A DNA stretch of 33,042 nucleotides, taken from the NCBI RefSeq assembly GCF_001435995.1, contig NZ_AYYQ01000008.1, positions 1 through 33,042 of the forward strand. The letters are read 5' to 3'. Position 1 is the first letter of the stretch. Each line of letters begins with the position of its first letter. The stretch is from Apilactobacillus ozensis DSM 23829 = JCM 17196. Its GTDB lineage: Bacteria; Bacillota; Bacilli; Lactobacillales; Lactobacillaceae. Shown here piece by piece: positions 5,321 to 25,663 of the stretch. A program made the position numbers and the translations under genes. Under the pieces are notes generated by a model that was not told the DNA's origin, did not search any database, and saw only the letters and a program-made list of their open reading frames with translations.

Positions 5321-6841
5321 ATGTCTAAAAAAATATGTTTGTTTTTAATAACTGTATTTTCAGGAATAATGTTTTTTAGCAATTTTAATAATTTTAGTCA
5401 TCCAATTTATTATAATGTGAAGGCTGATGATAAAGTTGTAACGGAAGGAACAAATGGTACATGTCATTGGAAACTAGATAGTGATGGTACTTTAACGATT
5501 GAAAGTGGCACATTATCTAAAGGAATAGCGGATACTTTAGATAGTGATAATGTAAGTAAAATAAAGCATATTATATTATCGGGAAAAGTTTATGCTCCTA
5601 CAGACTCTAGTTATTTATTTTCTGATATGGATAATCTAGAAAGTATTGAAAATATGGAGAATTTAGATACATCCAACGTTGTTAATATGACATCTATTTT
5701 TCAGTCTAATCCTAAATTGGAAAATTTAGATTTAAGCAAATTGGATGTTACAAAAGTTACTAGTATGAGCCGAGCTTTTGCAGATTTGCCAAAAGTTAAG
5801 CATTTAGATGTGTCTAAATTTAATACTAGTAATGTTACCAATATGAATGAATTGTTTTCTGCAGATTCTAGTTTAGAATCAATTGATGTTGGTGGTTGGG
5901 ATACTAGTAATGTTACTAATATGAATACAATTTTTTTAGGTACTAATATTTCCAAATTAGACTTAAGTAATTGGAATATGGACAAGGTAACAGTAGCTCC
6001 TTATATGTTCGCCTATAGTGGTATAAAATATATTAATATTAGCAATAAGTTTTCAATTCCTAATAATGCCGATTCCGGCATTTTTGAGGGATCCAATAGT
6101 TTATGGAAAATAAAAATCAGTAACAATACTTTCGGTAATAATAACGAGCTATTAAAGAATAATAAAATTAAACTGCCAGATGTTCCTGGTGATAATAAAG
6201 AGTTTACAGATGGTGATATAACTTTTGTTTCTACACAAAAGTACTGGAAAGAAATAGGCCAAGGTTCAGATCATAATCCTCTAGGAGATATCTTAGATAC
6301 TAACTCTCCGATAAAAGCTGGTACCTATGTTTGGGATAATTATGCTAAGCCAACAACACCAACAACACCAACAACACCAACAACACCAACAACACCAACA
6401 ACACCAAAAAAGTTTAGACCCTTTTATGTTTACAATTTAAAGAAAATAGGTTTGCACAAGAATACAAAATTTTCTAAAAATAAATTTGTTAAGTATTATA
6501 AAAAGGGAAATTATTTTAAAGTTTTAGGATATTCTAAATCTAAAACTGGATTATTAAGATATCATGTTAAATCTAATAATTCTAAAGGATACATTACCGC
6601 AAACGATAGCTATGTAAGAAAACTATATTACACTAAAATTAAATTAGGTAGTAGTAATGTCATAGCTTTAAAAAATGTTAATTTAAGTAAGAATTTAAAC
6701 AAACATAGTTATAAAACATTTAAAAAGGGTAAAATTGTTTCAGTAAATAAATTAATAGAAAAAGACTATAAATATTTTTTCAGAACTATTAACGGATATT
6801 ACTTTGAAGCAAATAAGAAATTAGTTAAATTAATTAAATAA
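5321..6841 (+). CDS. BspA-like leucine-rich-repeat surface protein with (PTT) linker, 506 aa
   Basis: This is a secreted adhesin-type protein. The signal peptide runs from MSKK to about NVKA (residue 35). Residues 75-250 contain BspA/DUF285-type repeats with the core LDTSNVVNMTSIF, recurring as FNTSNVTNMNELF and WDTSNVTNMNTIF. A linker of six PTT units at residues 344-362 follows. The Lys- and Tyr-rich C-terminal region (363-506) ends in a DUF5776-like domain that resembles the end of the 1519-residue protein at 17765-22324. There is no LPXTG motif, so the C-terminal domain probably binds the wall non-covalently. The ATG at 5321 sits 11 nt after GAAAGG; the upstream in-frame GTG is too close to that site. 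The function as an adhesin is inferred from architecture. Confidence 0.85.
   Translation: MSKKICLFLITVFSGIMFFSNFNNFSHPIYYNVKADDKVVTEGTNGTCHWKLDSDGTLTIESGTLSKGIADTLDSDNVSKIKHIILSGKVYAPTDSSYLFSDMDNLESIENMENLDTSNVVNMTSIFQSNPKLENLDLSKLDVTKVTSMSRAFADLPKVKHLDVSKFNTSNVTNMNELFSADSSLESIDVGGWDTSNVTNMNTIFLGTNISKLDLSNWNMDKVTVAPYMFAYSGIKYINISNKFSIPNNADSGIFEGSNSLWKIKISNNTFGNNNELLKNNKIKLPDVPGDNKEFTDGDITFVSTQKYWKEIGQGSDHNPLGDILDTNSPIKAGTYVWDNYAKPTTPTTPTTPTTPTTPTTPKKFRPFYVYNLKKIGLHKNTKFSKNKFVKYYKKGNYFKVLGYSKSKTGLLRYHVKSNNSKGYITANDSYVRKLYYTKIKLGSSNVIALKNVNLSKNLNKHSYKTFKKGKIVSVNKLIEKDYKYFFRTINGYYFEANKKLVKLIK
6350..6406 (+). repeat. Six tandem copies of a 9-bp unit (CCAACAACA) encoding PTT
   Basis: The copies are identical at the nucleotide level with one extra CCA at the end. 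They encode the proline-threonine linker of the surface protein. Because the unit is a multiple of three, copy-number change would lengthen or shorten the linker without shifting frame. Confidence 0.95.
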
Positions 6842-10375: not shown

Positions 10376-13300
10376 ATGTCATTACAATTTATTATCGGAA
10401 CCGCTGGATACGACCACAACGATAAAATAATCGAAAGTATGCAAGCAAGACTAGATAATCACTCTGATGAACAGAATTTTTATATCGTTCCCAACCATAT
10501 TAAGTTTGAGTCAGAAGTGGATACTTTAAAGCATTTAAATATTGAAAATAATCCTTTTTTTGCTAGCAATAACCTACAAGTCTTTTCAATGACTCGATTG
10601 GTTTGGTATTACTTGAAAAATCATCCAGAATACCAAAAACCACAATTAAGTGAATCTGGAATTAACATGTTGATTTACCAAATCATCTTGGACCATCAAG
10701 CTGACTTAACGATTTTTAATGGTGAACTTGGTCAAACTGGGTTCGTTGCTAAAATAGCTAAACAAATTGCAGAGATGCAAGCAGGCTGTATTTCAGCAGA
10801 TGACTTAGACCAGTTAACCAATATGGATCATCATTTTAAGTCAGAATTAAATGATAAATTAAAAGATTTTGCAATTATATACCGTGAATTTGAAGCACGG
10901 ACTTTAGGTAAATATTTGCATAAATCCGATATGCTAGATATTTTAAATAGTTATTTAAACCAAGCTGATACCAAGCTGGATAAAACTAATTTTTACATCA
11001 GTGGATTCTCACAACTTACGGCTCAAGAACGTGCGATAGTTGAAACCATGATAAAAAAAGCCAACCTAGTGGTTATTGACTTAACTTTGGATAAACCGTA
11101 TCCTAGCCAATTACCAGAAGAACCAGATTTATTTTATAAGTCTGCTCGTTTATATCATGAACTCTACCAATTAGCACGCATGCATAATAAGCATGTATTA
11201 ACTGATATCTATGCCAACCGTCCTAGAGTAAATGCAGACCTATTAAAGTTAGATAATTATTGGAAAGAATCAGCTAAGATGGGTCAAATCAGGGATGCTA
11301 AGTTGGAAAATAATTCGGTTGAAGTTTGGCAAACTGATAATAATTATGCGGAAGTTTCGTATATAGCCAATCAGATTCGGCAAATGGTAGCTACTAAAAA
11401 TTATAAATATTCGGATTTCTTAGTTATGACTAGACATTTGGATAGCTATAAAAACATTATTAAACCGATATTTGATATGGAAGACATTCCCTTTTTTAAT
11501 GATGTTCAAAAAAACATGGCCGACCATCCGTTAGTAGAACTACTGAATGCGTTATTTAGCATTGACAGCCAGCATGGCAAAAGTTACCAATATGCTGACG
11601 TGATGCGTTTATTAAAAACTGAAATGTTAATTCCTAAAGATTCCAATGGTGATTACCTTGATATCAACGATTATCGTAATCGAATTGATTTGACTGAGAA
11701 TTTAGTTTTACGCAATGGCTATGAAGGTAATAAATGGTTACAAAAGGAAGATTGGCAGTATGCCTGGAGCGATGATGCCGATTTTGGTGTGCAATTTGAT
11801 AAGAACGATGCCATAACTACACAAATAAATAGTATTCGTCATTTTATAAAAGATACGTTACCACCATTTTATAAAAAAATAAGGGCAGCTAAAAATGGAT
11901 TACAGGCAGCTACTATTTTGTACCAATTTATGGTGGATATTGGGGTTTCCGACCAGCTGAATACGTGGCGCAATAATTTAATTAATGCAGGAAAATTAGA
12001 AGCATCCACACGTCCAGAACAAGTGTGGAATACATTCTGTAGCTTATTAGACGATTATGTAACGGTATTGGGTGATACTGAATTTAAGGAAGAAGATTTT
12101 TTAGCACTATTACAAGCTGGATTTGAAGGTGCTAGTTATAACCAAATTCCTTCAACTCTAGACCAAGTGGCAATTTCTGAAAGTGGAATTGTACAAATGA
12201 ATAATCGAAAAGTTGTCTTTATGATGGGTTCAACTGACGATGTAATGCCTGACCATATTGTTAATGACAACTTATTCAACGATGCTGATCGCGATGATTT
12301 AAGTGACTACTTAACTGATGAGCAGTACTTAAGTGATACCTCCGAACGTCAAATGGCTGATGACCAATATTTGAACTATTTATCGTTTTTAGTTGGTTCA
12401 CAAAAATTAATTTTTAGTTTTAGTGCTAGTCAAGACGTAGATACGGTAGTTAATATTTCACCATATGTGGCTAGAATTGCCGACCATTTCAACATTGAAA
12501 TTAAACATTTACCAGCTACCGCAGATGCTAAATCATCTAATATTGATAAATTTTTGGGAACAAAGCGCTCAACGTTAAGACGTTTAGTACAAGCTAGTCA
12601 AGATAGTAAAAATAGTAACGTTGAACTATCAGCTTCTTGGAAATATGTTTATCAAAAATTAGGGCATGACCTTAACTTTAAAGCATTGACTCAAAAATTA
12701 TTGGGTGGTTTAAAATATCAAAATATTCCTACACAATTATCTCCGGAAATTATTACGAAATTATACGGAAACCAATTGAGTACTTCGATTTCAAAATTAG
12801 AACAATTTTATAGTAATCCCTATGAGTACTTCTTAAAATATGGTTTAAAACTTCAAGAAAGAAACGTATTTGATTTATCACCAGCGAACACTGGTCAGTT
12901 CTACCATGAAGCAATGGATAAAATCATGCGTAAAATTAATGCCGAAAAGATTGATTTATCAAGCTTAGAAATTAAAGACGTAAGAGCTTTAGTCGGTGAA
13001 GTTACTCAAAAAATGTTGGAAGATGCGCAAGATTTCCAATATGCCATTTTACAAAGTTCTTATCGAATGCAATATATTAAAAAGCAATTAGTCGAAACTG
13101 TTCAACGAACCTTGTTAACAATGCATGAACAAAGTAAATATACGCCAATGCGTCCACGCAATACTGAAATCTCATTTGGTCAAGTTGGACAAAAAAACGA
13201 TTTGAATCCTTTAAAATTTGTTCTTTCGCCAGACCAGGTTATTCAAGAACCTAAACTTATCAACGTTCGGGGCCGAATTGACCGAGTTGATGTTATGAAC

Positions 13301-13942
13301 GTTAATGGTCGCGATTATGTTGGAATCGTGGATTATAAATCTAGCCAACATAAATTAGAGTTTGGCAAGATATATGATGGAACTTCCATGCAAATGCTGA
13401 CTTATTTGGATGTATTGGCTAAGAACTTAGATTTATGGACAGAAACTGAAAAAGCAGCTTTAGCTGGGGCGGTATACATGCATATCAACAATCCAAAACT
13501 AACGATTAAAGAAATTAATAAAAGTATTGAAGATGCCTTTTTAAATAAGCAAAAATATTCAGGCATTTTAGTTAATAATGATGAATTGCTAAATAAAATT
13601 GATCGTGCACTTAGTGATGAAAATTATGGAAGCTCAAAAGTATTCCCACTTCGGAAAAATAAAAATGGTAGTTTTTCAAAGACTAGCCCAATCGTGGAAC
13701 CAGCAGATTTAGAATTGATGATTGCTCATAATGAAGATTTAATTAAGCATGCCGGACACGAGATCTTTTCAGGTAACATTGATATAGCACCTGCCAAATG
13801 GGCACCAAACAGTAATGCAATGAAGTACACACCTTATAAATCAATTATGCAGTTCGATCCATTGTTAACTGAAAATAATTATCGTGAAGTTGATTCGATG
13901 GGACTATCAGAATTTATTAAAAGATTAAAGACGGAGGACTAA
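10376..13942 (+). CDS. rexB: ATP-dependent helicase/nuclease subunit B (RexB/AddB), 1188 aa
   Basis: This is the second subunit of the RexAB (AddAB) complex, which resects double-strand breaks up to Chi-like sites for RecA loading. The N-terminus FIIGTAGYDHND sits where AddB has a Walker A loop, but GxxGxGKS is absent, as in other RexB proteins. The body is helicase-like. The RecB-type nuclease domain shows GQFYHEAMD near residue 844, GRIDRVDV near 972, and the catalytic D986-Y987-K988 in GIVDYKSS followed by QMLTYLD. The segments that carry the iron-sulfur cysteines in Bacillus AddB are present as SNPYEYF near 812 and KYTPYKSIMQFD near 1150, and they contain no cysteine. AGAGGTAG precedes the ATG. 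The stop is 1 nt from the rexA start. Confidence 0.95.
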   Translation: MSLQFIIGTAGYDHNDKIIESMQARLDNHSDEQNFYIVPNHIKFESEVDTLKHLNIENNPFFASNNLQVFSMTRLVWYYLKNHPEYQKPQLSESGINMLIYQIILDHQADLTIFNGELGQTGFVAKIAKQIAEMQAGCISADDLDQLTNMDHHFKSELNDKLKDFAIIYREFEARTLGKYLHKSDMLDILNSYLNQADTKLDKTNFYISGFSQLTAQERAIVETMIKKANLVVIDLTLDKPYPSQLPEEPDLFYKSARLYHELYQLARMHNKHVLTDIYANRPRVNADLLKLDNYWKESAKMGQIRDAKLENNSVEVWQTDNNYAEVSYIANQIRQMVATKNYKYSDFLVMTRHLDSYKNIIKPIFDMEDIPFFNDVQKNMADHPLVELLNALFSIDSQHGKSYQYADVMRLLKTEMLIPKDSNGDYLDINDYRNRIDLTENLVLRNGYEGNKWLQKEDWQYAWSDDADFGVQFDKNDAITTQINSIRHFIKDTLPPFYKKIRAAKNGLQAATILYQFMVDIGVSDQLNTWRNNLINAGKLEASTRPEQVWNTFCSLLDDYVTVLGDTEFKEEDFLALLQAGFEGASYNQIPSTLDQVAISESGIVQMNNRKVVFMMGSTDDVMPDHIVNDNLFNDADRDDLSDYLTDEQYLSDTSERQMADDQYLNYLSFLVGSQKLIFSFSASQDVDTVVNISPYVARIADHFNIEIKHLPATADAKSSNIDKFLGTKRSTLRRLVQASQDSKNSNVELSASWKYVYQKLGHDLNFKALTQKLLGGLKYQNIPTQLSPEIITKLYGNQLSTSISKLEQFYSNPYEYFLKYGLKLQERNVFDLSPANTGQFYHEAMDKIMRKINAEKIDLSSLEIKDVRALVGEVTQKMLEDAQDFQYAILQSSYRMQYIKKQLVETVQRTLLTMHEQSKYTPMRPRNTEISFGQVGQKNDLNPLKFVLSPDQVIQEPKLINVRGRIDRVDVMNVNGRDYVGIVDYKSSQHKLEFGKIYDGTSMQMLTYLDVLAKNLDLWTETEKAALAGAVYMHINNPKLTIKEINKSIEDAFLNKQKYSGILVNNDELLNKIDRALSDENYGSSKVFPLRKNKNGSFSKTSPIVEPADLELMIAHNEDLIKHAGHEIFSGNIDIAPAKWAPNSNAMKYTPYKSIMQFDPLLTENNYREVDSMGLSEFIKRLKTED

Positions 13943-13943
13943 T

Positions 13944-16900
13944 ATGCAATATACTGATTCGCAAAAAAAAGCTGTTTATAATCAATACGATGGCAATGTT
14001 TTAGTTTCAGCATCTGCTGGTTCAGGTAAGACCCGTGTATTAGTGGATCGTGTAATTAATAAATTAATAAAGCAAAATATCAGTATTGATGAGTTACTAA
14101 TTGTAACTTTTACGCGTGCAGCTGCTAAAGAAATGCGTGAACGAATTCAAACAGCTTTAAGAACCGAATTGAATAATTCTAAAGATAACCAGGAAAAATT
14201 ATTCCTATTAAAGCAGTTACGCAAATTACCCGTAGCCAATATCTCAACTTTAGATTCATTTTGTCAGACTATTTTGCAAAGATATTACTATATTATTAAC
14301 CTAGACCCTGAATTTAGAGTTATGGCGGACCAAACAGAGATTGCGATGCTCAGAGAGCAGGTTTGGGAACAAGTACGTGAAAACTTTTATGCTAATGATA
14401 GTGATGAATCATTTGCCCAATTGACGGCTAATTTTTCTAGTGACCGTTCTGATGATGGTTTAACGGACTTAGTATTTAAAGTTTATGATTATGCGAATGT
14501 TAATAAAGACCCACATGCCTGGTTAGTTTCTACGATTAATCAATATGAAATTAACAACCATTCCATTGTCGAAAGTGACTTTTATCGTAAACACTTGTTA
14601 AATTTAATTCAGACTGAATTAAAACAAATTCAATTAACCTTACAAAGTGCGATGAACATTACTAAAAATAATGGATTAGCTAAAGCATCTGAAGTGATTA
14701 ATGATGATATTTTGAAATTAAATGCTTTTGATATAGCTTTAAGCACTGATAGTTGGGACGAAATTAGAAACATTTTTTATGGAATTAAGTTCGCAACTTT
14801 CCCTAGAACTAACAAAACCTATTCCGATGTTGAAAAAGATGCTCATGACCGGGCTAAAAATCTCCGGGATGCTGCTAAAAAAGATTTAATTAAAATGGGA
14901 AATGATTATTTTACGCTCACGGAAGCTGATAATCTTTCGATTATGCAACATTCTAAAAAACTAGTTACTAAACTAGTGCAAGTTATTGAAAAATTTAGTC
15001 ATGAATATAAAATTGCGAAAATTCGCCGCCATGCCTTTGAATTTATCGACATTGAGCATTATGCGTTAGATATTTTATCTGACCAAAGTGAAATTGCTCA
15101 AAATGTTCGACAAAATTTAATTGACCAATTTAACGAAATTATGGTGGATGAGTATCAAGATAATAACAACTTACAGGATGCAATATTAAGAACTGTTGCG
15201 AAAAATAACCCTAGTAATATGTTCATGGTGGGAGATGTAAAACAATCAATATATCGTTTTAGATTAGCGGACCCCAGCATGTTCATTGATAAAATGAGTA
15301 AATATCAAGATGCCGATAATCAAGATGCCGAAATAACTTTATCCGAAAACTTTCGTTCAACCAAAGAAATTGATCGATTTATTAATTTAATTTTTGAACA
15401 AATTATGGATAATCAAGTGGGAGAAATTGATTATACTGGGCCTGCTAAATTGATTGCGGGAGCCGATTATTATCCAAAGGAACTTAAATCAACCGTGGAT
15501 GTACTTATATATGAAAGCGACAGTGAAGATGAAGATAAAGCAGATGTAGAAGATAATCAATTCCAGGTTAGTGATAGTGCACATGGGCAAATTGAGTTAA
15601 TTGCCCAGAAAATTAATCAGCTGGTAGGTAAGCAATCTATATATGATCGTGATCAAAAACAAACGCGTCCCATCAAATATTCAGATATAGCAATATTATC
15701 CGCCACGCGAAACAACAATTTAATTATGTCGGATGTATTTGACCGTTATAATATTCCGGTGCAAATTAATGGAGCACAAAGCTATTTCAAAACGACTGAG
15801 ATTCAAATTATGATTTCATTGTTGAGTATTATTGATAATCCTTACCAAGATATTCCACTAGTGGCAGTTTTACGTTCGCCAATCGTGGGATTAGACGAAA
15901 ATCAATTAGCATATTTAAGAATTAATAGTAAGACTGGTGACTACTATTCAGCGGTGCTTAATTTTTACGATAAATATGATGATATGCAACATACAGATTT
16001 TTCAGACCATGTATTTGAAAAAATAAAAATATTTTTAGAAGATTTGAAACATTTTCGTGACATGGCGCAACAGCATGAATTAGTAGATTTAATATGGGAC
16101 GTTTATTTGAGGACTGGATTTTTAGATTATGTAGGTGGGATGCCAGGTGGTAAACAACGCCAAGCCAATCTACATGCTTTATACGACCGTGCAGAGGTTT
16201 ATGAACAATCTAATTTTAAAGGGTTATTTCAATTCATTAGGTTCGTTAAAAGAATGCAAGCCCAAAATAACGATTTAGATGAAGCCAACGCTACTTCCGA
16301 TGATGATATGGTATCAGTGATGACCATTCATGGTAGTAAAGGGCTTGAGTTTCCAGTCGTCTTTTTAGCAGATGTTTCACATGGTTTTAACTTACAAGAT
16401 ACTTATAAACCATACGTATTAAATGACCATTTAGGGCTAGGCATTACCTATTTAGACCCCGCAAGTCGAGTAAAAAAAGATACTTTACAACGCCAAATGA
16501 TTGTAAAAGTAGAAAACCGTAGTACTTTAGCCGAAGAAATGCGTAAACTATATGTGGCACTAACACGAGCGGAACAGAAATTATATATTGTGGGTGCAAC
16601 TAAAGAGCGTAATACCCGTAAAAAAGTATTAGATTTGTGGGGGAAAGCTAAAGATGAATCTAATATCGTTTTAGATGCCTCCCTACGAAGTGATGCTAAA
16701 AGTTATTTAGACTGGATAGGGCCAGCGTTATTTAGACATAACTGTTTTACCGTAGATGAATCTAAGTTCCATATTTTAGATAGTGATAAGGCTGAATTTA
16801 ATTTTGCGTTCGTTACTAAGGCAGATTTAGGCAAGTATACAAATGTATCAGGAGACGATGAAGACAGTAGTGAATGGTTAAATCAATTGAATGGTGAATC

Positions 16901-17654
16901 TGATTCGACAATCGCGCCTATCGAAGATATTGATAAAGTCATGGATTTTAATTATTCTAATCGAATTGCTACGCTAACCACGGCTTATCAATCAGTTTCT
17001 GAAATAAAACGTGTTTTTGAAGATCCAGATAATATTCGTTTAGGTAATTATGTGGATGAACAAAATAGTAATCAAGCAAACCGTTATGTTAAAAATAATT
17101 TTAAGCAACCTGATTTTTTGCAGTCTAATGTAAAGCCTCAAGCAACTGAAATTGGGACGGCAACACATTTAGTTTTACAAAAAATTAATCTAAATGCTCC
17201 TGTTGATTTTGACATGGTTAATCAATTAATTAATGATTTAGTCCATGACAAACTTATTCTAAGCGAAGTTGCTAAGAAGATTAATGTGTCTAGCATTGTA
17301 GAATTTTTTAATGGGAAATTGGGACAATTTACTATTAAAAATAAATGCAATTTTCATCGTGAAGTACCTTTCTCGCTATTAATAAATGCTAACCAAATTT
17401 TTGATGGATTTAATAATGATGCTGATGAAAAGATTCTCATTCATGGGATTATTGATGGTTACGTAGAATTAGAAAATCAAGTTATATTATTTGATTACAA
17501 AACTGACTTTGTAAAAAATAATGTTAATGAAATTTTAGATAAGTATCGAGGACAACTCAATCTTTATGGAATTGCTTTAGAAAAAATGTTGAATAAAAAA
17601 GTAAGTCATAAATTCATACATTTACTAAACATAAATAAAACTGAAGAGATATGA
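13944..17654 (+). CDS. rexA: ATP-dependent helicase/nuclease subunit A (RexA/AddA), 1236 aa
   Basis: This is the 3'-5' UvrD-like helicase and nuclease subunit of the RexAB recombination complex. Visible helicase motifs are Walker A ASAGSGKT (23-30), TFTRAAAKEM (Ia), VDEYQD with D402-E403 (II), GDVKQSIYRFR (III), TIHGSKGLEFPVVFL near 794 (V) and KLYVALTRAEQKLYI (VI). The C-terminal RecB-like nuclease has GTATHLVLQ, HGIIDGYVE and the catalytic D1184-Y1185-K1186 in LFDYKTDF. Length is normal for AddA. ACGGAGG lies inside the end of rexB, 6 nt before the ATG, so translation is coupled. A strong terminator 10 nt after the stop ends the unit. Confidence 0.97.
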   Translation: MQYTDSQKKAVYNQYDGNVLVSASAGSGKTRVLVDRVINKLIKQNISIDELLIVTFTRAAAKEMRERIQTALRTELNNSKDNQEKLFLLKQLRKLPVANISTLDSFCQTILQRYYYIINLDPEFRVMADQTEIAMLREQVWEQVRENFYANDSDESFAQLTANFSSDRSDDGLTDLVFKVYDYANVNKDPHAWLVSTINQYEINNHSIVESDFYRKHLLNLIQTELKQIQLTLQSAMNITKNNGLAKASEVINDDILKLNAFDIALSTDSWDEIRNIFYGIKFATFPRTNKTYSDVEKDAHDRAKNLRDAAKKDLIKMGNDYFTLTEADNLSIMQHSKKLVTKLVQVIEKFSHEYKIAKIRRHAFEFIDIEHYALDILSDQSEIAQNVRQNLIDQFNEIMVDEYQDNNNLQDAILRTVAKNNPSNMFMVGDVKQSIYRFRLADPSMFIDKMSKYQDADNQDAEITLSENFRSTKEIDRFINLIFEQIMDNQVGEIDYTGPAKLIAGADYYPKELKSTVDVLIYESDSEDEDKADVEDNQFQVSDSAHGQIELIAQKINQLVGKQSIYDRDQKQTRPIKYSDIAILSATRNNNLIMSDVFDRYNIPVQINGAQSYFKTTEIQIMISLLSIIDNPYQDIPLVAVLRSPIVGLDENQLAYLRINSKTGDYYSAVLNFYDKYDDMQHTDFSDHVFEKIKIFLEDLKHFRDMAQQHELVDLIWDVYLRTGFLDYVGGMPGGKQRQANLHALYDRAEVYEQSNFKGLFQFIRFVKRMQAQNNDLDEANATSDDDMVSVMTIHGSKGLEFPVVFLADVSHGFNLQDTYKPYVLNDHLGLGITYLDPASRVKKDTLQRQMIVKVENRSTLAEEMRKLYVALTRAEQKLYIVGATKERNTRKKVLDLWGKAKDESNIVLDASLRSDAKSYLDWIGPALFRHNCFTVDESKFHILDSDKAEFNFAFVTKADLGKYTNVSGDDEDSSEWLNQLNGESDSTIAPIEDIDKVMDFNYSNRIATLTTAYQSVSEIKRVFEDPDNIRLGNYVDEQNSNQANRYVKNNFKQPDFLQSNVKPQATEIGTATHLVLQKINLNAPVDFDMVNQLINDLVHDKLILSEVAKKINVSSIVEFFNGKLGQFTIKNKCNFHREVPFSLLINANQIFDGFNNDADEKILIHGIIDGYVELENQVILFDYKTDFVKNNVNEILDKYRGQLNLYGIALEKMLNKKVSHKFIHLLNINKTEEI

Positions 17655-17663
17655 AAATAACAG

Positions 17664-17693
17664 AGCTAATCCGATATCGGATTAGCTTTTTTT
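17664..17693 (+). terminator. Terminator of the rexBA transcript
   Basis: A perfect 24-bp palindrome (17664-17687, AGCTAATCCGAT and its complement) runs directly into seven Ts. It begins 10 nt after the rexA stop. It also shows that the reading frame continuing into the next gene from 17651 is not the true gene start. Confidence 0.93.
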
Positions 17694-17764
17694 GTGCAAA
17701 AAAATTTATTTATTCTATTATTAGTTTTAGAATATATTTATATACAAAAGTGGGGGAATTAGAA

Positions 17765-20700
17765 ATGATTATAAATAAAAAAGTAAAATTATATGGATCA
17801 TTATTATCAGTTTTAGTAGCCTCAACCGGAGCAATGGCTTTTGCCCCCCAGGCTATTAATGCGGATAGTTCAGGAAATTTAAGTGGCAATGTTAGCAATA
17901 GTACTTTTGCTATTCGTAGAGTTGATGGTTTAACTGTCGGTTCCAACACCATTAGTTTGTATGTTCCAGGTGCTAAAAACTATCCAGGTACAATTTATGC
18001 AATTGGAGTTCAAAGACCAGACCAATCCAGCTATATGTGGTGGAGCAAAGGTATAAATGAGAGTAACAATGGCACTTTATTTACAGTCTCATTTACCAAT
18101 CCAATGAACCAAGCATTTGTAGCTAATCCATTAAATGTTGGTAAAAAAATGACGTTTGTTGTTCAGTTCAAAGTCAATGGCAAACAATATGACAGTGATG
18201 CTTATAGCAAGCCATTAGACAGTACTGCTCTTATGGTTTCTAAAGCTTCTGCAAAGAAATTATTGGATGTCTTAAGTCCTTTGATTGGTGACGATGCTGT
18301 TCAAGATGGTAAAAATGATATCGAAGATAGTAATACAGTTTCAGGAGTTGCTAGTGCTACCATTAATGCTATTTTTAGGTCTTTTGATAAAATGACTGAT
18401 GATTTTAATACCAAAGTTGATGCAATGAATAACCTTAGCCAATCTGATAAGGATAATCTAAAGAAGCAATTTGCTGCTAAAGTTAAAGCTGCTAAAGATA
18501 ATTTAAATGGTAATAACGACATAGCTGCTATTACTAATGCATTTAATTCTGTTAAGAGTAGTTATGATGATTTATTGAATCAAGGTCAAAAAAATGGCGA
18601 TTCTAATTTAAATGATCAAAAGTCTAAACAAATAAATGCTTTAGATAATGATTTAAAGGATAAATTCGATAAGATTGATAAAATGAGTGGCTTGTCTGAT
18701 GACTTAAAAGCGGCTGCCAAACAAGATTTGCAAGCTATTCATGATAAAGCAGTTACTAATGTTAACAATTCTAATAATTTAAAAGATATTGATTCAGCTA
18801 CTACCGGTGGATTAAACGACTTAGACACAGCCTTTAATAAAATTAGTAGCAAGCACGATAGTATCAGAGCCAACAAAGATTTATACAAAAAGACATTGGC
18901 TAATAAAGCGGCTGCTTTAAATACTCAAATTGATAATTTGACTAACCTTAGTGAAACTAAAAAAGCCGAGTATAAAAACCAAATTAATAAGGAATTATCC
19001 GTTGGTACTAATGAAATTGATAAAGCAACTGACGAAAGTAAATTTACTGGCATTGTCTCTACATATTCTGATGATATGCAGAAATTATATGATGGTATTC
19101 AGAAAAACCATGATGATGGTTTAAAGAATGAGCAAACTGCAGCTACTGATTCAAATTCTCAATTGCAAAAAACGCATGATGCTTTAGTTAAACAACTTGA
19201 TGGCTTAGGAAATCTAAGTGTTGATGATAAGAAGGCTTTAGTTACTAAATTAGATGCTGCTTTGAAAAAAGCAAACGATAATGTAAATAATTCCAATAAT
19301 AGCAATCAAATTAAAAATTCTGTTAATAATGGTATTGATGATATGAATAGCATTTTCAAAGATGCTAAAACTAATCATGATACTGATTTACAAGCTTATA
19401 AAGATAAAAAGATTGATGACTTAAATAATTCTGCTAACGCCGATAAAAAAGTTATTGATGGTTTAACTAATCTTACCGATGCCGAAAAAAATACTATGAA
19501 AGCAACGATTGACGCTAAATTAAATACAGCAATTGCTCAATTAGAAGCTGCTAACAGCAATGCTGCAGCTGATAGTGCAACTGCCAATGGTCAACAGGAT
19601 ATGGACAGTTACACTAACCAACAAAAATCTAATCATGATACAGGTTTGCAAAAAGCTAAAAACTTGGCTAATCAACAAATTGATAGTCAAGGAGCTGCGA
19701 TTAAAGCGCAGATTGACGGGTTAACTAATCTGTCTGATGATGCTAAAACAGCTGCAAAAGCTTCGGTTGATAAGCAAATAGCTGCTGCAAATGATGCTAT
19801 TAATGCAGCTAACAACCAAAGTGATATTTCTAAAAATTTAGCTGATAATGCTAAAACATTGAATGATCAATTTACCACTTTAAAGAATAATCATGACCAA
19901 GAATTAGCTGCTGCGAAAGTATCAGCGATTGCTGAAGTTAATACTAAACGTGATAACACAATTAAAATGCTTGAAGATTTAACTAACTTATCCAGCGATG
20001 CTAAGCAAAAAATTATTGACCAACTAAACAGTGATGCTACAGCGGCTGAGGATAATATTAATAATGCGAACAATAATTCTGGCATAGTCACTGCCAAAAA
20101 CAATGGAATTCAAGCATTGGAAAATTATTATAAGACTCACAAAGATAGTCATGATACAGCTTTAGCTAGTGATAAAAGTTCAGCAATTAAAGATTTACAA
20201 GATGATGCTCAAAAACAAATCGATAAAGTTAATGGCATGACTAACTTAAGCGACTTGGATAAAAAATCGATGGTAGATCGTATTAATGCGGATGTAGATG
20301 ATGCAACGTTAAAAATTAATCAAGCACTTACTACTAAGGATGCACAAAGTGAGTCTGCAAATACGCAAAAAATGATTCAAAAATATGTAGCTGATAAGGA
20401 TAAGATTCAAAAAGACAACTTACGTCAGGCTAAAGCTCTCGCTAACAAAGCTTTAGATGCCCAACTAAAGAACTTACAAGATCAAGTTGATGATTTGAGC
20501 AACTTAAGTGCGGGTGATAAAAGTAAAATTAAATCCATATTAGCTAAACAAGTTGCTGAAAATCAAGATAATATTAATCAACAAAATAATGAAAAAGATG
20601 TTGATACTTCTTATGATAATCAAAAACAATTGTTAAACAATATGTTTAATAACGTTAAAGATGATCATGATAAAACCTTACAAAAATCTAAAGATAACGC

Positions 20701-22324
20701 CATTGACAAACTACAAAATGAGTATGATAGTCTAAATGATGAAATTGATACTCTAACTAATCTTTCAGAACAGCAACGTGATGATTTAAGGAATCAATTA
20801 ACTGATAAGTTTAAATCAGCTCAAGATAAAGTTAATCAAGATGCAACCGATGACGCCATAAATTCAGATACTAATCAAAGTATTTCCGACATGGATAATA
20901 TTTTTAACAATGTAAAATCAGCCCATGATACGGACTTGAGCAATGATAAAACTAGTGATAAAAGTAAGGTTGACGATGCAGTTAAAAATGCTAAAAATAT
21001 CATTAACGGACTGACTAATTTAAGTGATGAAACTAAGCAATCATTATTCAATGCCCTTGATGATATTGCTAGTGAAACTGGCAATATGATTGATAGTTCT
21101 TTGACCACTGGTGATGCTGATGAATCTATGCAAAACGCCATTGACAATATTAATCAATACGTCAATGATCAAAAACAAGCTCATGACGATGACTTAAACA
21201 ATGTTAAGAATGATACTAATGACGAATTATCTAACCAAGTTCATGATATTAATCTTAGAATTGGTCAACTAACTAACTTATCACCTAGTCAAAGACAATT
21301 AGCTTTAAATACTTTAAATAGTATGTTGGTTGATTCAAAGTCTATCATTAATAATTTGGGCACAAACAAGAGTATCAATGATGCTTCGGATATATCTACT
21401 CAAAAAATGAACGATTTCTTTAACAAGTTGAAACTAGACCATGACAATGGTTTGGATAATGATCGTAAAGTAGCAACTGATTCATTAAATTCGGACTTAA
21501 TGATGTTACAAGCTGACGTTGATAAACTACCAAATCTTACTGATGCTCAAAAACAACAAGCTAAAACTGACTTTGGTAATATACTTAATAAATATAAAGA
21601 TATGTTCAGTAACGGCCAAACTACTTCTGACATTCAGGGTGCTTTAGACAATGCTTTAAATGAAATGTCTAATTTATTCAAAAATAATAACGATTTAAAT
21701 AATTCTCAAAATTATTACTACTACGGTGATTTTAATAATAGCGGTAACAATGATAAGACTAACAAATCTAACGCAAACCAAAGTAGTAGTAACTTGAAGA
21801 TTGCATGTACGAACCGTCGAATTAATAAATCCAATATCTTTATGTCCAAACCAGTAGCCATTTATACAGGTAAATCGGTTAAGTTATATTACGATCCATC
21901 ATTTAAGAATCGTCTTAACTGGAAATATTCCGATAAGGATTCCTTGAACTTAGGTCGCCCTGCATTCATTGTTAAAAGAGTTATGTATGGTATAAATGGT
22001 AAACCAGTTGCTTACTATGTTCAAAATATGGATTATAAAACTTACAATAGTAACTCATATAAAAAATTTGGTTGGATTAGAGCGACTGGTAATGCAATTA
22101 GAGGTTTATACTACAGAAACGCAAGTAGTAAGACTTTAGTTGTAACTTCAAAGGGTGGTATTAATTACTACAATAATGCTAGTTTAAGTGGTAAATCCGG
22201 TCACTATAAAAATGGTAAAAAGTTACACTTTAAGAAAATAATTAAGAATGGAATTACAACTAGAATTTTATTATCAAATGGTAAATACATTTCTGGTAAT
22301 AAATTATTAGTTAAAGTTATGTAA
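17765..22324 (+). CDS. Giant secreted surface protein with 13 helical repeats, 1519 aa
   Basis: This is a fibrous cell-surface protein. The signal peptide has a hydrophobic core (LLSVLVASTGAMAF) and a probable cut after NA near residue 35. Residues 40-165 form a unique strand-rich domain with no recognised family. Residues 190-1310 hold 13 repeats of about 86 residues, each with a core such as IDGLTNLSDDAK, a helix, and a closing segment ending in HD near a DLxxxK helix start. These resemble DUF1542/Ebh-type three-helix spacers. A Asn/Ser/Tyr-rich linker leads to a DUF5776-like C-terminal region (about 1335-1519) shared with the 5321-6841 protein. There is no LPXTG motif or membrane tail. The ATG at 17765 follows GTGGGGG by 8 nt. 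The likely role in adhesion, aggregation or wall spanning is inference. Confidence 0.88.
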   Translation: MIINKKVKLYGSLLSVLVASTGAMAFAPQAINADSSGNLSGNVSNSTFAIRRVDGLTVGSNTISLYVPGAKNYPGTIYAIGVQRPDQSSYMWWSKGINESNNGTLFTVSFTNPMNQAFVANPLNVGKKMTFVVQFKVNGKQYDSDAYSKPLDSTALMVSKASAKKLLDVLSPLIGDDAVQDGKNDIEDSNTVSGVASATINAIFRSFDKMTDDFNTKVDAMNNLSQSDKDNLKKQFAAKVKAAKDNLNGNNDIAAITNAFNSVKSSYDDLLNQGQKNGDSNLNDQKSKQINALDNDLKDKFDKIDKMSGLSDDLKAAAKQDLQAIHDKAVTNVNNSNNLKDIDSATTGGLNDLDTAFNKISSKHDSIRANKDLYKKTLANKAAALNTQIDNLTNLSETKKAEYKNQINKELSVGTNEIDKATDESKFTGIVSTYSDDMQKLYDGIQKNHDDGLKNEQTAATDSNSQLQKTHDALVKQLDGLGNLSVDDKKALVTKLDAALKKANDNVNNSNNSNQIKNSVNNGIDDMNSIFKDAKTNHDTDLQAYKDKKIDDLNNSANADKKVIDGLTNLTDAEKNTMKATIDAKLNTAIAQLEAANSNAAADSATANGQQDMDSYTNQQKSNHDTGLQKAKNLANQQIDSQGAAIKAQIDGLTNLSDDAKTAAKASVDKQIAAANDAINAANNQSDISKNLADNAKTLNDQFTTLKNNHDQELAAAKVSAIAEVNTKRDNTIKMLEDLTNLSSDAKQKIIDQLNSDATAAEDNINNANNNSGIVTAKNNGIQALENYYKTHKDSHDTALASDKSSAIKDLQDDAQKQIDKVNGMTNLSDLDKKSMVDRINADVDDATLKINQALTTKDAQSESANTQKMIQKYVADKDKIQKDNLRQAKALANKALDAQLKNLQDQVDDLSNLSAGDKSKIKSILAKQVAENQDNINQQNNEKDVDTSYDNQKQLLNNMFNNVKDDHDKTLQKSKDNAIDKLQNEYDSLNDEIDTLTNLSEQQRDDLRNQLTDKFKSAQDKVNQDATDDAINSDTNQSISDMDNIFNNVKSAHDTDLSNDKTSDKSKVDDAVKNAKNIINGLTNLSDETKQSLFNALDDIASETGNMIDSSLTTGDADESMQNAIDNINQYVNDQKQAHDDDLNNVKNDTNDELSNQVHDINLRIGQLTNLSPSQRQLALNTLNSMLVDSKSIINNLGTNKSINDASDISTQKMNDFFNKLKLDHDNGLDNDRKVATDSLNSDLMMLQADVDKLPNLTDAQKQQAKTDFGNILNKYKDMFSNGQTTSDIQGALDNALNEMSNLFKNNNDLNNSQNYYYYGDFNNSGNNDKTNKSNANQSSSNLKIACTNRRINKSNIFMSKPVAIYTGKSVKLYYDPSFKNRLNWKYSDKDSLNLGRPAFIVKRVMYGINGKPVAYYVQNMDYKTYNSNSYKKFGWIRATGNAIRGLYYRNASSKTLVVTSKGGINYYNNASLSGKSGHYKNGKKLHFKKIIKNGITTRILLSNGKYISGNKLLVKVM
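18340..21690 (+). repeat. Thirteen diverged repeats of about 258 bp inside the giant surface protein
   Basis: The conserved L-T-N-L-S-like core recurs near 18428, 18685, 18940, 19205, 19460, 19720, 19980, 20240, 20498, 20755, 21012, 21273 and 21528, giving a period of about 254-266 bp. The copies are well diverged at DNA level, so the array is old and is not prone to simple slippage. Copies 5 and 13 carry NLT instead of NLS, and copy 2 carries GLS. Confidence 0.85.
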
Positions 22325-23141: not shown

Positions 23142-23378
23142 TCTTAGCTCCTTTCTATATTGCATGTTACAGATGAATTTAGAAATAACCTAGATAATTA
23201 ACTACACATTCGTTAAATTATCCATGATAAGATTCTTGCCAATTAATAAGACGGTAAAAAATTAGGTAAAAACGGTAAATTATTATTTATTAGTAAATAT
23301 TGTGCCAATCAATATGTCATTTTAAAAATAAAAATTATAATAAAGTTGTTATAAAAAAATTTGATTGGAGATATGATT

Positions 23379-24044
23379 ATGAACAAACAATTTTATAAAT
23401 TTACGTGTTTGCCAATTTTAATGTTTATAGTTTTATTGTACGTTACGCCAATGCTAACTAATGTTTTTCATGCTAGCATTTCAACATATTTAGTGGTGTA
23501 CATGTTAATGCAAGTTTTATTACTAGCTGTTGGGCCAATGTGTTTGTATAAAAATGAATATCTAGATTCATTGAAATTATTTAAAAAGCATATTTTTAAA
23601 TATGTTATGTTAGCAATTATTCTATGGATTATTATAGCCGTAGCTCAAGTTATTGCAGCTAAAATGACTGGTGTTAGTGCAAGTAACCAGACATTTATAA
23701 ACAGTGTGACTGATAAGGGAACCTTACTATCATTTGCTTTATCAATTGTTTTAACTTTCGTTGCTCCCATTAATGAAGAGATGATTTTTAGACGAATCTT
23801 AATTGGTAACTTTAAAAATCACATCCCAGTTTGGTCCTTAGTAATTATTTCTTCAATTCTATTTGGTTTAATTCATATGCACACAGTTCAAGATTTACAA
23901 GTCATTTTTCCATATATAATAATTGGATTCTTATTTGCTGGTGCTTATATTAAAAATCAATACAACATTGTAGTTTCAACTTTTTGTCATATATTTTTAA
24001 ATTTAGTAGTGGCCGTAATCGGTTTAATTGCTGCTAGTCGATAA
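23379..24044 (+). CDS. CPBP (Abi) family intramembrane metalloprotease, 221 aa
   Basis: This multi-spanning membrane protein has the three CAAX-protease/bacteriocin-processing signatures: NEEMIFRRIL near residue 132 (EExxxR), FGLIHMH near 166 (FxxxH), and CHIFLNLV near 205. About six or seven hydrophobic segments surround them. In lactobacilli relatives act in bacteriocin immunity or in processing membrane proteins; the substrate here is unknown. The ATG at 23379 is 8 nt from TTGGAG, whereas an in-frame ATG at 23373 is too close to it. It is divergent from the HTH regulator. The 237-bp gap between them holds three short GGTAAA direct repeats but no clear gene. Confidence 0.87.
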   Translation: MNKQFYKFTCLPILMFIVLLYVTPMLTNVFHASISTYLVVYMLMQVLLLAVGPMCLYKNEYLDSLKLFKKHIFKYVMLAIILWIIIAVAQVIAAKMTGVSASNQTFINSVTDKGTLLSFALSIVLTFVAPINEEMIFRRILIGNFKNHIPVWSLVIISSILFGLIHMHTVQDLQVIFPYIIIGFLFAGAYIKNQYNIVVSTFCHIFLNLVVAVIGLIAASR

Positions 24045-24051
24045 TAATAAT

Positions 24052-24079
24052 TTGCACGTTGCCCTATTTTTGATAGAAT
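24052..24079 (+). promoter_or_regulatory. Candidate promoter for the acetaldehyde dehydrogenase gene
   Basis: TTGCAC (24052-24057) and TAGAAT (24074-24079) are separated by 16 bp and lie 43 bp upstream of the start codon. No terminator separates it from the CPBP gene, so readthrough is also possible. Confidence 0.5.
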
Positions 24080-24121
24080 TTATATTAGTAACAAATTTTA
24101 TTGAAAAGTGGGAGGATTATA

Positions 24122-25498
24122 ATGACTGAAGTTAATGAAATGATTAATAATTTAGTTAAAAAAGCTAACGTTGCTTTAAAAGAAATGTCAGCTTTTGATC
24201 AAGAAAAAGTTGATAAAATTGTCGACGCTATGGTTCAAGCTGGTTTAGAGCATAGTGTTGAGTTAGGTAATTTAGCTTATTCAGAAACCGGTCGAGGAGT
24301 TGCTCATGATAAAGCTATCAAGAACGTCTTCGCTGCTGGACAAGTAGGCGAAAGCATTAAAAATCATAAGACTGTTGGGATTATTGATGAAAATAAGGAA
24401 GATAAGACCATCACAGTCGCCGAGCCTCTAGGAGTACTAGCTGGGATTACACCAGTAACTAACCCCACTTCTACCACTATTTTCAAATCAATCCTTTCTA
24501 TGAAAACTAGAAATGCAATTGTTTTTAGTTTCCATCCACAAGCGATGAAATCATCTGCTAAGGCAGCTGAAATTGTCAGAGATGCTGCAGTTGCTGCAGG
24601 AGCACCTAAAGATTGTATTCAATGGATTACTGAACCTAGTATTGAAGCTACTAACCAATTAATAAATAATCCAGGCATTGCTAGCACTTTAGCTACTGGT
24701 GGACCTGCGATGGTTAAAGCAGCATATTCTACCGGAAAACCAGCTTTAGGAGTTGGTCCAGGTAATGGTCCATTGTATATTGAAAAATCTGCTGATGTTG
24801 ATGCAGCCGTTAAAGACGTTGTAGCTTCCAAAACTTTCGATAACGGAATGATTTGTGCTACTGAAAATAGTTTGATTATTGATAATGATATTTATGAAGA
24901 AATAAAACAAAAATTACAAGCTAGCGGAGTATTCTTCGTTAAATCAGCCGACCAAGCTGCATTAGCTGAAGCAATGTTTAATCCAGAAACTGGTGGTGTT
25001 AAAGGACCAATCGCCGGAGCTAAGGCTACTAAGATTGCTAAAATGGCTGGAATTGAAGTTCCCGAAGATACCAAAGTTTTAGCCGCTGAATTAGATGGTA
25101 TTGGCCATGACTACCTATTGTCAGGTGAAAAATTATCACCAGTGGTTTCGGTTTACAAGGCTAATGACCAAGCTGATGCCTTTGATATTGCTACTAGATT
25201 ACTAGAATATGGTGGTTTAGGTCACACTGCAGCTATTAGAACTGAAGATCGTGATGTAGCAATTAAATTTGGTGAAGAAATGCAAGCTTGTCGTATCCTA
25301 GTTAATACACCTTGTGGATTAGGTGGGGTAGGTGCTATCAATGGCTTAGCTCCTTCACTTACTTTAGGGACTGGAACTTGGGGTGCCAACTCAATTGACC
25401 ATAACGTTAACGATTATGATTTGATTAATCGTAAGGTCATTGCCGGTTGCTTAAAGAATGATTATTTAGATAGTTTAATTGCAAAATATGCAGATTAA
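24122..25498 (+). CDS. Acetylating acetaldehyde dehydrogenase (AdhE N-terminal domain only), 458 aa
   Basis: It should interconvert acetyl-CoA plus NADH with acetaldehyde, CoA and NAD. The sequence follows the aldehyde dehydrogenase half of AdhE throughout: YSETGRGVAHDKAIKN, VAEPLGVLAGITPVTNPTST, VVRDAAVAAGAPKDCIQWI, GVGPGNGPLYIE, the catalytic Cys C245 in FDNGMICATENS, and GGLGHTAAI. It ends soon after LGTGTWGANSIDHNVNDYDLINRK, where AdhE continues through a linker into the iron alcohol dehydrogenase domain. Here that domain is missing and a terminator follows at once. The downstream 450 bp contain no relic of it. Fructophilic lactobacilli are known for lost or altered adhE, so this may be such a reduction (inference). 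GGGAGG lies before the ATG. Confidence 0.92.
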   Translation: MTEVNEMINNLVKKANVALKEMSAFDQEKVDKIVDAMVQAGLEHSVELGNLAYSETGRGVAHDKAIKNVFAAGQVGESIKNHKTVGIIDENKEDKTITVAEPLGVLAGITPVTNPTSTTIFKSILSMKTRNAIVFSFHPQAMKSSAKAAEIVRDAAVAAGAPKDCIQWITEPSIEATNQLINNPGIASTLATGGPAMVKAAYSTGKPALGVGPGNGPLYIEKSADVDAAVKDVVASKTFDNGMICATENSLIIDNDIYEEIKQKLQASGVFFVKSADQAALAEAMFNPETGGVKGPIAGAKATKIAKMAGIEVPEDTKVLAAELDGIGHDYLLSGEKLSPVVSVYKANDQADAFDIATRLLEYGGLGHTAAIRTEDRDVAIKFGEEMQACRILVNTPCGLGGVGAINGLAPSLTLGTGTWGANSIDHNVNDYDLINRKVIAGCLKNDYLDSLIAKYAD

Positions 25499-25504
25499 AA
25501 AAAG

Positions 25505-25541
25505 AAAAAGCATCGATGATTTAATCATCGATGCTTTTTTA
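25505..25541. terminator. Bidirectional terminator between acetaldehyde dehydrogenase and the tRNA-like RNA
   Basis: AAAAAGCATCGATGAT and ATCATCGATGCTTTTTT form a perfect stem with loop TTA. T-runs exist on both strands. On the plus strand it ends the dehydrogenase gene. On the minus strand it begins within 5 nt of the 3' end of the tRNA-like element. Confidence 0.93.
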
Positions 25542-25545
25542 TTAG

Positions 25546-25614
25546 TGAGCTGTGATGTTCCGCACACCATCTTCTCAACAAAGGATTGAGTGCTCTACCT
25601 TGAGCTAACAGCTC
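25546..25614 (-). tRNA. tRNA-like gene with intact cloverleaf stems but abnormal T and anticodon loops
   Basis: On the minus strand 69 nt fold as a cloverleaf. The acceptor GAGCTGT/ACAGCTC is 7 of 7 paired. Positions 8-9 are TA. The D stem is GCTC/GAGC with loop AAGGTA, and the anticodon stem is CTCAA/TTGAG with loop TCCTTTG. The variable region is AAGAT, the T stem is GGTGT/ACATC (one G-U pair), and the discriminator is A. Conserved U8, A14, purine 15, G18, G19, A21, purine 26 and pyrimidine 48 are kept. The T loop is only five bases (GCGGA) with no TTC, and base 33 is C instead of U. By position the anticodon is CTT. CCA is not encoded. It is either a decayed tRNA or a specialised tRNA-like RNA; the intact stems favour function. 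Confidence 0.6.
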
Positions 25615-25634
25615 ATAACTTAACAACAGATACC

Positions 25635-25663
25635 ATTTAACCATAATTTGCTAAAAATTTCAA
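25635..25663 (-). promoter_or_regulatory. Candidate promoter of the tRNA-like RNA
   Basis: On the minus strand TTGAAA (25658-25663) and TTAAAT (25635-25640) are separated by exactly 17 bp. A start about 7 nt downstream would leave a leader of roughly 14 nt before the cloverleaf, typical for a tRNA gene. Confidence 0.45.

What the first reader, a model, noticed from the sequence alone, without database searches (positions are those of the whole stretch)
25505..25663. A complete transcription unit for a 69-nt tRNA-like RNA with a five-base T loop
Seen directly: on the minus strand all four cloverleaf stems pair fully (7, 4, 5 and 5 bp, one G-U), and the tRNA core bases U8, A14, R15, G18, G19, A21, R26 and Y48 are present. 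The T loop is only GCGGA and base 33 is C. A TTGAAA-17-TTAAAT promoter lies about 20 nt upstream, and a strong terminator starts 5 nt after the 3' end. A decaying pseudogene should lose pairing at random; here loops are altered while every stem survives. It could be a tRNA withdrawn from elongation (for example serving peptidoglycan or another aminoacyl transfer), or an RNA mimic. Those roles are speculation.
Basis: partly seen in the sequence, partly recalled or inferred. Interest (0 to 1): 0.8.

Follow-up and report, generated by a model that had tools for sequence, protein, structure and literature searches.

The report
Conserved lysine tRNA probably outside translation
Bee- and flower-associated lactobacilli keep an extra, oddly built lysine tRNA that looks unfit for protein synthesis and may instead supply lysine for modifying the cell membrane.

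Summary
The cloverleaf at 25546-25614(-) is real and is not a decaying pseudogene. It is in 16 of 16 genomes of its genus, Apilactobacillus; the core is 88-98% identical between subclades while flanks are 50-71%. Homologues occur in four more Lactobacillaceae genera, with changes on both sides at 14 of 21 pairs.

The "five-base T loop" is not the key feature: relatives have a 7-nt TTC loop on a four-pair stem. The anticodon loop is: lysine identity bases (CUU, A73) are kept, but position 37 is always U and 33 is C in several lineages. The host's 41 ordinary tRNAs all have U33 and a purine at 37.

FemAB is absent from 16 of 16 genus genomes. MprF, the lysyl-phosphatidylglycerol synthase, is in 29 of 29 carriers tested. 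The one Fructilactobacillus without the RNA has a stop codon in mprF. In a Fibrobacteres MAG a tRNA of this type lies 183 nt from an LPG-synthase ORF.

Best reading: a lysine tRNA withdrawn from elongation, probably a lysyl donor for MprF. Transcription, charging and MprF use are inferred.

The parts
25546..25614 (-). extra tRNA-Lys(CUU)-like RNA: acceptor stem 25614-25608 with 25553-25547, discriminator A73 at 25546, D arm 25605-25592, anticodon arm 25590-25574, variable region 25573-25569, T arm 25568-25554
   Evidence: Rfam tRNA 36.5 bits; models R1 96.3 bits and R2 75.5 bits, the window copy being a row of both models; 16 of 16 genus genomes
25579..25585 (-). anticodon loop UCCUUUG: C33, anticodon CUU, U37
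   Evidence: invariant in the 16 genus copies; CUUU invariant in the 15 rows of A2
25554..25568 (-). T arm: 4-bp stem GGTG/CATC with 7-nt loop TGCGGAA, or 5-bp stem with loop GCGGA
25635..25663 (-). promoter-like site TTGAAA-17-TTAAAT with TG one base before the second hexamer
   Evidence: read directly; not listed by the scanner; function not shown
25505..25539 (-). terminator-like hairpin, T runs on both strands
   Evidence: hairpins with T runs also follow the RNA in relatives (read)

Best explanation
An extra lysine tRNA that has been taken out of translation. Shown: a strongly conserved tRNA gene, additional to the ordinary tRNA-Lys genes, with promoter-like and terminator-like signals, a covarying cloverleaf, and unchanging C34-U35-U36, A73 and U37. 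Inferred: CCA addition and charging with lysine by the housekeeping LysRS through the kept anticodon and A73. Inferred: poor use in elongation, because U37 cannot carry the t6A37 of lysine tRNAs (recalled knowledge), C33 where present spoils the U-turn (recalled), and the T stem is weak, which should weaken EF-Tu binding. Inferred: the lysyl-tRNA is therefore free for a non-ribosomal acceptor, most likely MprF, which moves lysine onto phosphatidylglycerol. I put about 0.75 on withdrawal from elongation and about 0.5 on the MprF step.
For: Core 88-98% identical between subclades, flanks 50-71%, shuffled baseline 54% for one upstream block. 14 of 21 pairs with changes on both sides, 99.7% of 310 cells paired, covariation score reached in 0 of 500 shuffles, slid structures 37-43% paired. 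41 of 41 ordinary host tRNAs have U33 and A or G at 37. A tRNA 93-100% identical to the host's ordinary tRNA-Lys(CTT) is present as well in 11 of 11 genomes tested. The 50-64 pair is a wobble in 15 of 15 rows of A2 against 3 of 41 ordinary tRNAs. MprF is found without stops in 16 of 16 genus genomes and 13 of 13 other carriers. G235, the one of 10 Fructilactobacillus genomes without the RNA, has an in-frame TAA in the MprF synthase domain. In Fibrobacteres MAG L108 a CUU-U37 tRNA lies 183 nt from a divergent LPG_synthase_C ORF (3e-37). FemAB is absent in 16 of 16 genus genomes.
Against: MprF also occurs in 12 of 25 tested genera without the RNA, so MprF does not need it; the genus-level association is weak (one-sided P 0.043, genera not independent). 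A review reports that MprF seems to read the amino acid rather than the tRNA (PMC4052509). In the Lactobacillaceae loci examined the RNA is not beside mprF. Neighbours examined of the other two MAG tRNAs showed no LPG synthase. One copy lies in an array of ordinary tRNAs (G119), which could also fit translation. Apilactobacillus keeps G18G19. No transcript or charging data.
Confidence: 0.5

Rival explanations
1. A lysine tRNA outside elongation whose customer is not MprF: another aminoacyl-tRNA-using enzyme, or a regulatory or decoy role (binding LysRS, a T-box leader or an anticodon nuclease).
For: All evidence for withdrawal from elongation applies equally; many MprF-bearing genera do without it.
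Against: MprF in 29 of 29 carriers, the broken mprF in the one Fructilactobacillus non-carrier, the LPG-synthase neighbour in another phylum. The only T box seen near an mprF (F. sanfranciscensis) precedes an ORF that looks like an amino-acid permease and one that looks like a homocysteine methyltransferase; I judged it a methionine T box by eye. No genome-wide T-box search was made.
Confidence: 0.25
2. Still a translating tRNA: a slow or specialised decoder of AAG, or, through C34-U35-U36-U37, a natural reader of the quadruplet A-AAG that promotes frameshifting.
For: CUUU at 34-37 is the invariant of the anticodon loop and is complementary to AAAG; several members keep U33; one copy lies in an ordinary tRNA array.
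Against: A normal tRNA-Lys(CTT) is present in the genomes tested; C33 in several lineages; weak T stem. Recalled: purine 37 and U33 are nearly universal in elongator tRNAs.
Confidence: 0.15
3. A small antisense RNA with a tRNA fold whose loop UCCUUU copies the anti-Shine-Dalgarno end of 16S rRNA and blocks ribosome-binding sites.
For: The loop UCCUUUG of Apilactobacillus, F. florum and F. lindneri contains UCCUUU; the anti-Shine-Dalgarno sequence is recalled.
Against: The second C is not conserved: F. sanfranciscensis, F. fructivorans, G048, G050 and the array copy of G119 have UUCUUU or CUCUUU. The lysine identity bases and the whole cloverleaf would not need to be kept.
Confidence: 0.07
4. 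A decaying tRNA-Lys pseudogene.
For: Missed by ARAGORN in the window; lowest of the 42 tRNA matches in its genome; T loop altered further in the window copy.
Against: One substitution in the core against A. xinyiensis while flanking blocks differ by 13-36%; presence in 16 of 16 genus genomes; covariation.
Confidence: 0.03

Closest known systems
Non-proteinogenic tRNA-Gly(UCC) isoacceptors of Staphylococcus aureus (pentaglycine bridge, FemXAB)
   Same: Extra isoacceptor beside normal ones, amino-acid identity bases kept, weak T-stem pairs, G18G19 lost in the Lactobacillaceae members outside Apilactobacillus (staphylococcal traits from PMC4052509 and PMC8007984, passages seen).
   Different: Lysine instead of glycine; U37 (and C33 in several lineages); Apilactobacillus keeps G18G19; no FemAB in the genus; the proposed acceptor is a membrane lipid.
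tRNA-Other of Bacillus cereus (pseudo-tRNA)
   Same: A pseudo-tRNA that is not used in translation; its deletion changes cell envelope traits (PMC3399842, abstract and introduction seen).
   Different: tRNA-Other has a Trp anticodon, is poorly charged in vitro and is reported as part of larger RNAs; the present RNA has a Lys anticodon and terminator-like and promoter-like signals close by.
Ordinary tRNA-Lys(UUU) and tRNA-Lys(CUU) of the host
   Same: Best pairwise alignment among 41 host tRNAs is tRNA-Lys(UUU), with a compensatory C-G to U-A change in the acceptor stem. Fructilactobacillus copies share the ACGGA/TCCGT anticodon stem with tRNA-Lys(CUU), so one common origin is not proven.
   Different: The ordinary ones have U33, A37, G15-C48, an 8-nt D loop and a 5-bp Watson-Crick T stem.

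Membership tests
tRNA (Rfam RF00005) | score at or above the curated gathering score | tested here: met
   36.5 against 29 bits; not reported with the fast filters over the whole window
Elongator tRNA-Lys | U33 and purine 37 | tested here: not met
   C33 and U37 in 16 of 16 genus copies; 41 of 41 ordinary host tRNAs have both
Elongator tRNA-Lys | lysine identity bases (anticodon with U35, U36; A73) | tested here: met
   invariant in A1 and A2; determinants from PMC9976931 passages
Elongator tRNA-Lys | use on ribosomes | not testable with these tools
   needs polysome or tRNA sequencing
Staphylococcal-type non-proteinogenic tRNA | extra isoacceptor beside a normal one | tested here: met
   tRNA 93-100% identical to the ordinary tRNA-Lys(CTT) in 11 of 11 genomes
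Staphylococcal-type non-proteinogenic tRNA | weak EF-Tu pairs in the T stem and altered G18G19 | tested here: inconclusive
   wobble at 50-64 in 15 of 15 rows, but for the 4-bp stem of Apilactobacillus the register is a choice; G18G19 kept in Apilactobacillus and lost in the other Lactobacillaceae members
Staphylococcal-type non-proteinogenic tRNA | FemXAB enzyme present | tested here: not met
   0 of 16 genus genomes; other carriers not tested
tRNA serving MprF (proposed) | MprF present in carriers | tested here: met
   29 of 29 carriers; host protein 936 bits on NF033480, cut-off 600
tRNA serving MprF (proposed) | charged with lysine and accepted by MprF | not testable with these tools
   needs charging and transfer assays
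B. cereus tRNA-Other | tRNA element inside a longer regulatory RNA | not tested
   a terminator-like hairpin begins 6 nt after A73 and a promoter-like site ends 20 nt upstream, which argues against a long RNA; no transcript was measured

The most novel reading that the evidence does not exclude
A tRNA lineage dedicated to membrane-lipid lysylation: these bacteria have split off a lysine tRNA that keeps LysRS identity but is barred from the ribosome by U37 (often with C33) and a weak T arm, so that MprF has its own lysyl-tRNA supply. The same solution recurs in at least one distant phylum, where the tRNA gene lies beside the LPG synthase gene.
Probability: 0.42. Interest if true: 0.88.

Novelty: new variant of a known kind. 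Interest (0 to 1): 0.76.

Why it matters
Reviews state as an open question how MprF obtains aminoacyl-tRNA in competition with EF-Tu (PMC9976931, passage seen; PMC4052509, section 8 read). A lysine tRNA with apparent built-in barriers to translation, found in 16 of 16 Apilactobacillus genomes searched (all with MprF), makes that question testable by one gene deletion and one charging assay. It would add a second amino acid, after glycine in staphylococci, for which a bacterium keeps a separate tRNA for envelope work. A conserved tRNA with U37 is also a sharp natural case for anticodon-loop rules.

Tried and rejected
Chance or pseudogene: rejected by genus-wide conservation and covariation.

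Five-base T loop as the key feature: rejected; relatives have a 7-nt loop.

Peptidoglycan role through FemX: no FemAB in 16 of 16 genus genomes.

Anti-Shine-Dalgarno antisense RNA: the needed C is not conserved.

Link to the neighbouring L,D-transpeptidase: adjacency does not hold. In 14 of the 15 other genus loci the gene upstream of the RNA is a membrane transporter (323-329 aa; PF03547 tested in one, L066), and in 13 of 15 a 257-aa short-chain dehydrogenase lies on the other side (PF00106 tested in L066). Other genera have other neighbours.

T box near mprF: one found, in F. sanfranciscensis, among five stretches around mprF genes of four genomes; judged a methionine T box by eye.

Plasmid records: no match. 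Viral contigs: 3 pattern hits, none a tRNA of this type.

Bacillota-wide pattern for CUU with pyrimidine 37: 7 of 398 genomes, none tRNA-like by eye; 5 genomes match the reversed control. That pattern is not fully sensitive: it does not match the window copy, whose T loop differs.

Pattern: 35 of 397 family genomes; 28 judged tRNA-like (16 Apilactobacillus, 9 Fructilactobacillus, G046, G119, G048) and 7 dropped as non-tRNA by eye (G028, G130, G211, G213, G353, G368, G374). It fixed CTTY at 34-37, so members found only by it (seven Fructilactobacillus genomes and G048) are not independent evidence for a pyrimidine at 37. Apilactobacillus, F. florum, F. sanfranciscensis and the Sy-1 group were found first by BLAST or model R1, but R1 was built from rows with UCCUUUG. 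The pattern missed G050, found later with R2.

Of the 25 stretches, 13 are Apilactobacillus (one titled uncultured Lactobacillus sp.), 4 Fructilactobacillus, 2 Sy-1 (one genome), 3 tRNAs of other phyla; L115, L119 and L123 were dropped as non-tRNA. The pattern fixed CTTT and AGAT.

Results against the reading: one of five measures, further pair types, does not exceed the shuffles (23 against a mean of 23.7). Genome G050 (not in A2) has two U-U mismatches in its T stem, and the second copy of G048 has C48 (both read). The Acidimicrobiia tRNA scores 63.9 on R2, below the host's ordinary tRNA-Lys(CTT) at 66.7. The Actinomycetota tRNA has a fully Watson-Crick T stem (read).

Full report
What was checked. 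The minus strand at 25614-25546 folds as a cloverleaf and reaches 36.5 bits on the Rfam tRNA model, cut-off 29. It is the lowest of 42 tRNA matches in its genome. ARAGORN does not see it in the window but calls tRNA-Lys(CTT) at the homologous place in 15 of 15 other genomes of the genus. The terminator palindrome has T runs on both strands, so it can serve the convergent aldehyde-dehydrogenase-family gene (24101-25498) too.

The T loop. In relatives the T arm has four pairs and a 7-nt loop, TTCRAAG or TTCGGAA. Against its sister A. xinyiensis (G014) the core has one substitution.

Distribution. BLAST of 25540-25640 matched 16 of 100 genomes: the own genome and 15 of 15 others of the genus, and none of the remaining 84. 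Titles name the genus Apilactobacillus; the species of the window was not determined. Model R1 over 397 family genomes added two Fructilactobacillus genomes (G040 F. florum, G170 F. sanfranciscensis) and the two genomes of the 'Lactobacillus sp. Sy-1' genus, G119 twice. A pattern search found the RNA in 9 of 10 Fructilactobacillus genomes and in a fourth genus, G048. Model R2 on 40 genomes (one per other genus, plus G235) gave G040 93.3, G048 90.2 and 84.3, G046 81.8 and a fifth genus, G050, 73.3 bits. All other listed matches were 67.4 bits or less, and those that I looked at are ordinary tRNA-Lys. Three MAGs of other phyla hold tRNAs with CUU-U37: Fibrobacteres 79.9, Actinomycetota 71.3 and Acidimicrobiia 63.9 bits. 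The last lies below the host's ordinary tRNA-Lys(CTT), 66.7.

Selection. Between Apilactobacillus subclades the core is 88-98% identical while the flanking 75-nt blocks are 50-71%, against a shuffled baseline of 54% for one upstream block. Across four genera in alignment A2 (Apilactobacillus, Fructilactobacillus, Sy-1 group, G048; 15 rows), 14 of 21 pairs changed on both sides, 99.7% of 310 cells pair, and no shuffle in 500 reached the covariation score; the count of further pair types did not exceed the shuffles. G050 was found after A2 was made. Its acceptor and anticodon stems pair, but its T stem has two U-U mismatches (read). Within Apilactobacillus alone only two pairs vary, both on both sides. 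A15-U48 replaces G15-C48 in the 15 rows of A2, so the tertiary core seems kept too.

What is odd. CUU at 34-36 and A73 do not change in any member seen, so lysine identity is kept (determinants: PMC9976931, passages seen). Position 37 is U in every member; position 33 is C in Apilactobacillus, F. florum, F. lindneri, one copy of the Sy-1 genus and the Acidimicrobiia tRNA, and U in the rest. All 41 ordinary host tRNAs have U33 and A or G at 37. Some of the search patterns fixed a pyrimidine at 37, see Tried and rejected. The 50-64 pair is a wobble in 15 of 15 rows against 3 of 41 ordinary tRNAs; for the 4-bp stem of Apilactobacillus the register is a choice. A tRNA 93-100% identical to the host's ordinary tRNA-Lys(CTT) is present in 11 of 11 genomes tested. 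These traits resemble the non-proteinogenic tRNA-Gly of S. aureus (PMC4052509 and PMC8007984, passages seen), but Apilactobacillus keeps G18G19.

Which acceptor. FemAB was found in 0 of 16 genus genomes. MprF was found in 16 of 16 and in 13 of 13 other carriers tested, none with a stop. Among one-per-genus genomes of genera without the RNA, 12 of 25 have MprF, against 5 of 5 carrier genera (one-sided Fisher P 0.043). MprF was one of two families tried, the genera are not independent, and ten further genera were not tested. Fructilactobacillus genome G235 has no member (best match 64.7 bits, an ordinary tRNA-Lys), and its mprF is cut by an in-frame TAA inside the synthase domain; a sequencing error is not excluded. 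In the Fibrobacteres MAG the tRNA at L108:5469-5542(-) lies 183 nt from a divergent ORF whose product matches LPG_synthase_C at 3e-37 and the C-terminal part of MprF (below that family's full-length cut-off). I judge the chance of such a neighbour at about 1% (a guess, not computed). The ORFs examined around the other two MAG tRNAs showed none. In the Lactobacillaceae loci examined the RNA is not beside mprF.

Interpretation. I conclude that this is a functional lysine tRNA taken out of elongation (about 0.75) and that MprF is its most likely customer (about 0.5). Reviews call the supply of aminoacyl-tRNA to MprF an open question. My nine searches of the open-licence PMC library listed no title or abstract opening that describes a dedicated tRNA for MprF or a U37 lysine tRNA. 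The lists were capped (for example 12 of 123 and 12 of 180), most listed papers were not opened, and the library lacks most subscription journals.

Limits. There are no expression, charging or phenotype data. The MprF association is correlative. A single origin of the RNA across genera is likely but not proven. The genera of G048 and G050 are unnamed here.

Noticed in passing
L108:5469-5542(-) and 5726-6748(+), Fibrobacteres MAG PLWQ01000010.1: CUU-U37 tRNA 183 nt from a divergent ORF with an LPG_synthase_C domain and no matched flippase part; used here as evidence, but the locus deserves study of its own.
   Followed up: partly
L117:1008-1078(-), Actinomycetota MAG; L122:4383-4458(-), Acidimicrobiia MAG: Other CUU-U37 tRNAs far from Lactobacillaceae, the second with C33; no LPG synthase among the nearby ORFs examined.
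   Followed up: partly
L235 1677-1750 and 3532-3605 (G048); L100 1501-1573 (G119): Two copies of the RNA 1.8 kb apart in G048; in G119 a second copy sits inside an array of ordinary tRNAs.
   Followed up: partly
L201 62-2314 (G235): mprF with an in-frame stop in the one Fructilactobacillus genome without the RNA; the frame goes on for another 110-aa ORF.
   Followed up: partly
window 25505-25539; G000 contig C2:47631-47670: A second place in the genome shares 85% identity over 40 nt with the terminator hairpin stretch.
   Followed up: no
window 23361-25498: The CAAX-protease and AldDH genes beside the RNA are shared with G014 (A. xinyiensis) only, among the 15 relatives' stretches searched; the others mostly have a short-chain dehydrogenase and a transporter at the place.
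   Followed up: partly
window 10376-22324: An AddB-like gene (1188 aa) is followed on the same strand by ORFs of 1236 and 1557 aa that were not examined.
   Followed up: no
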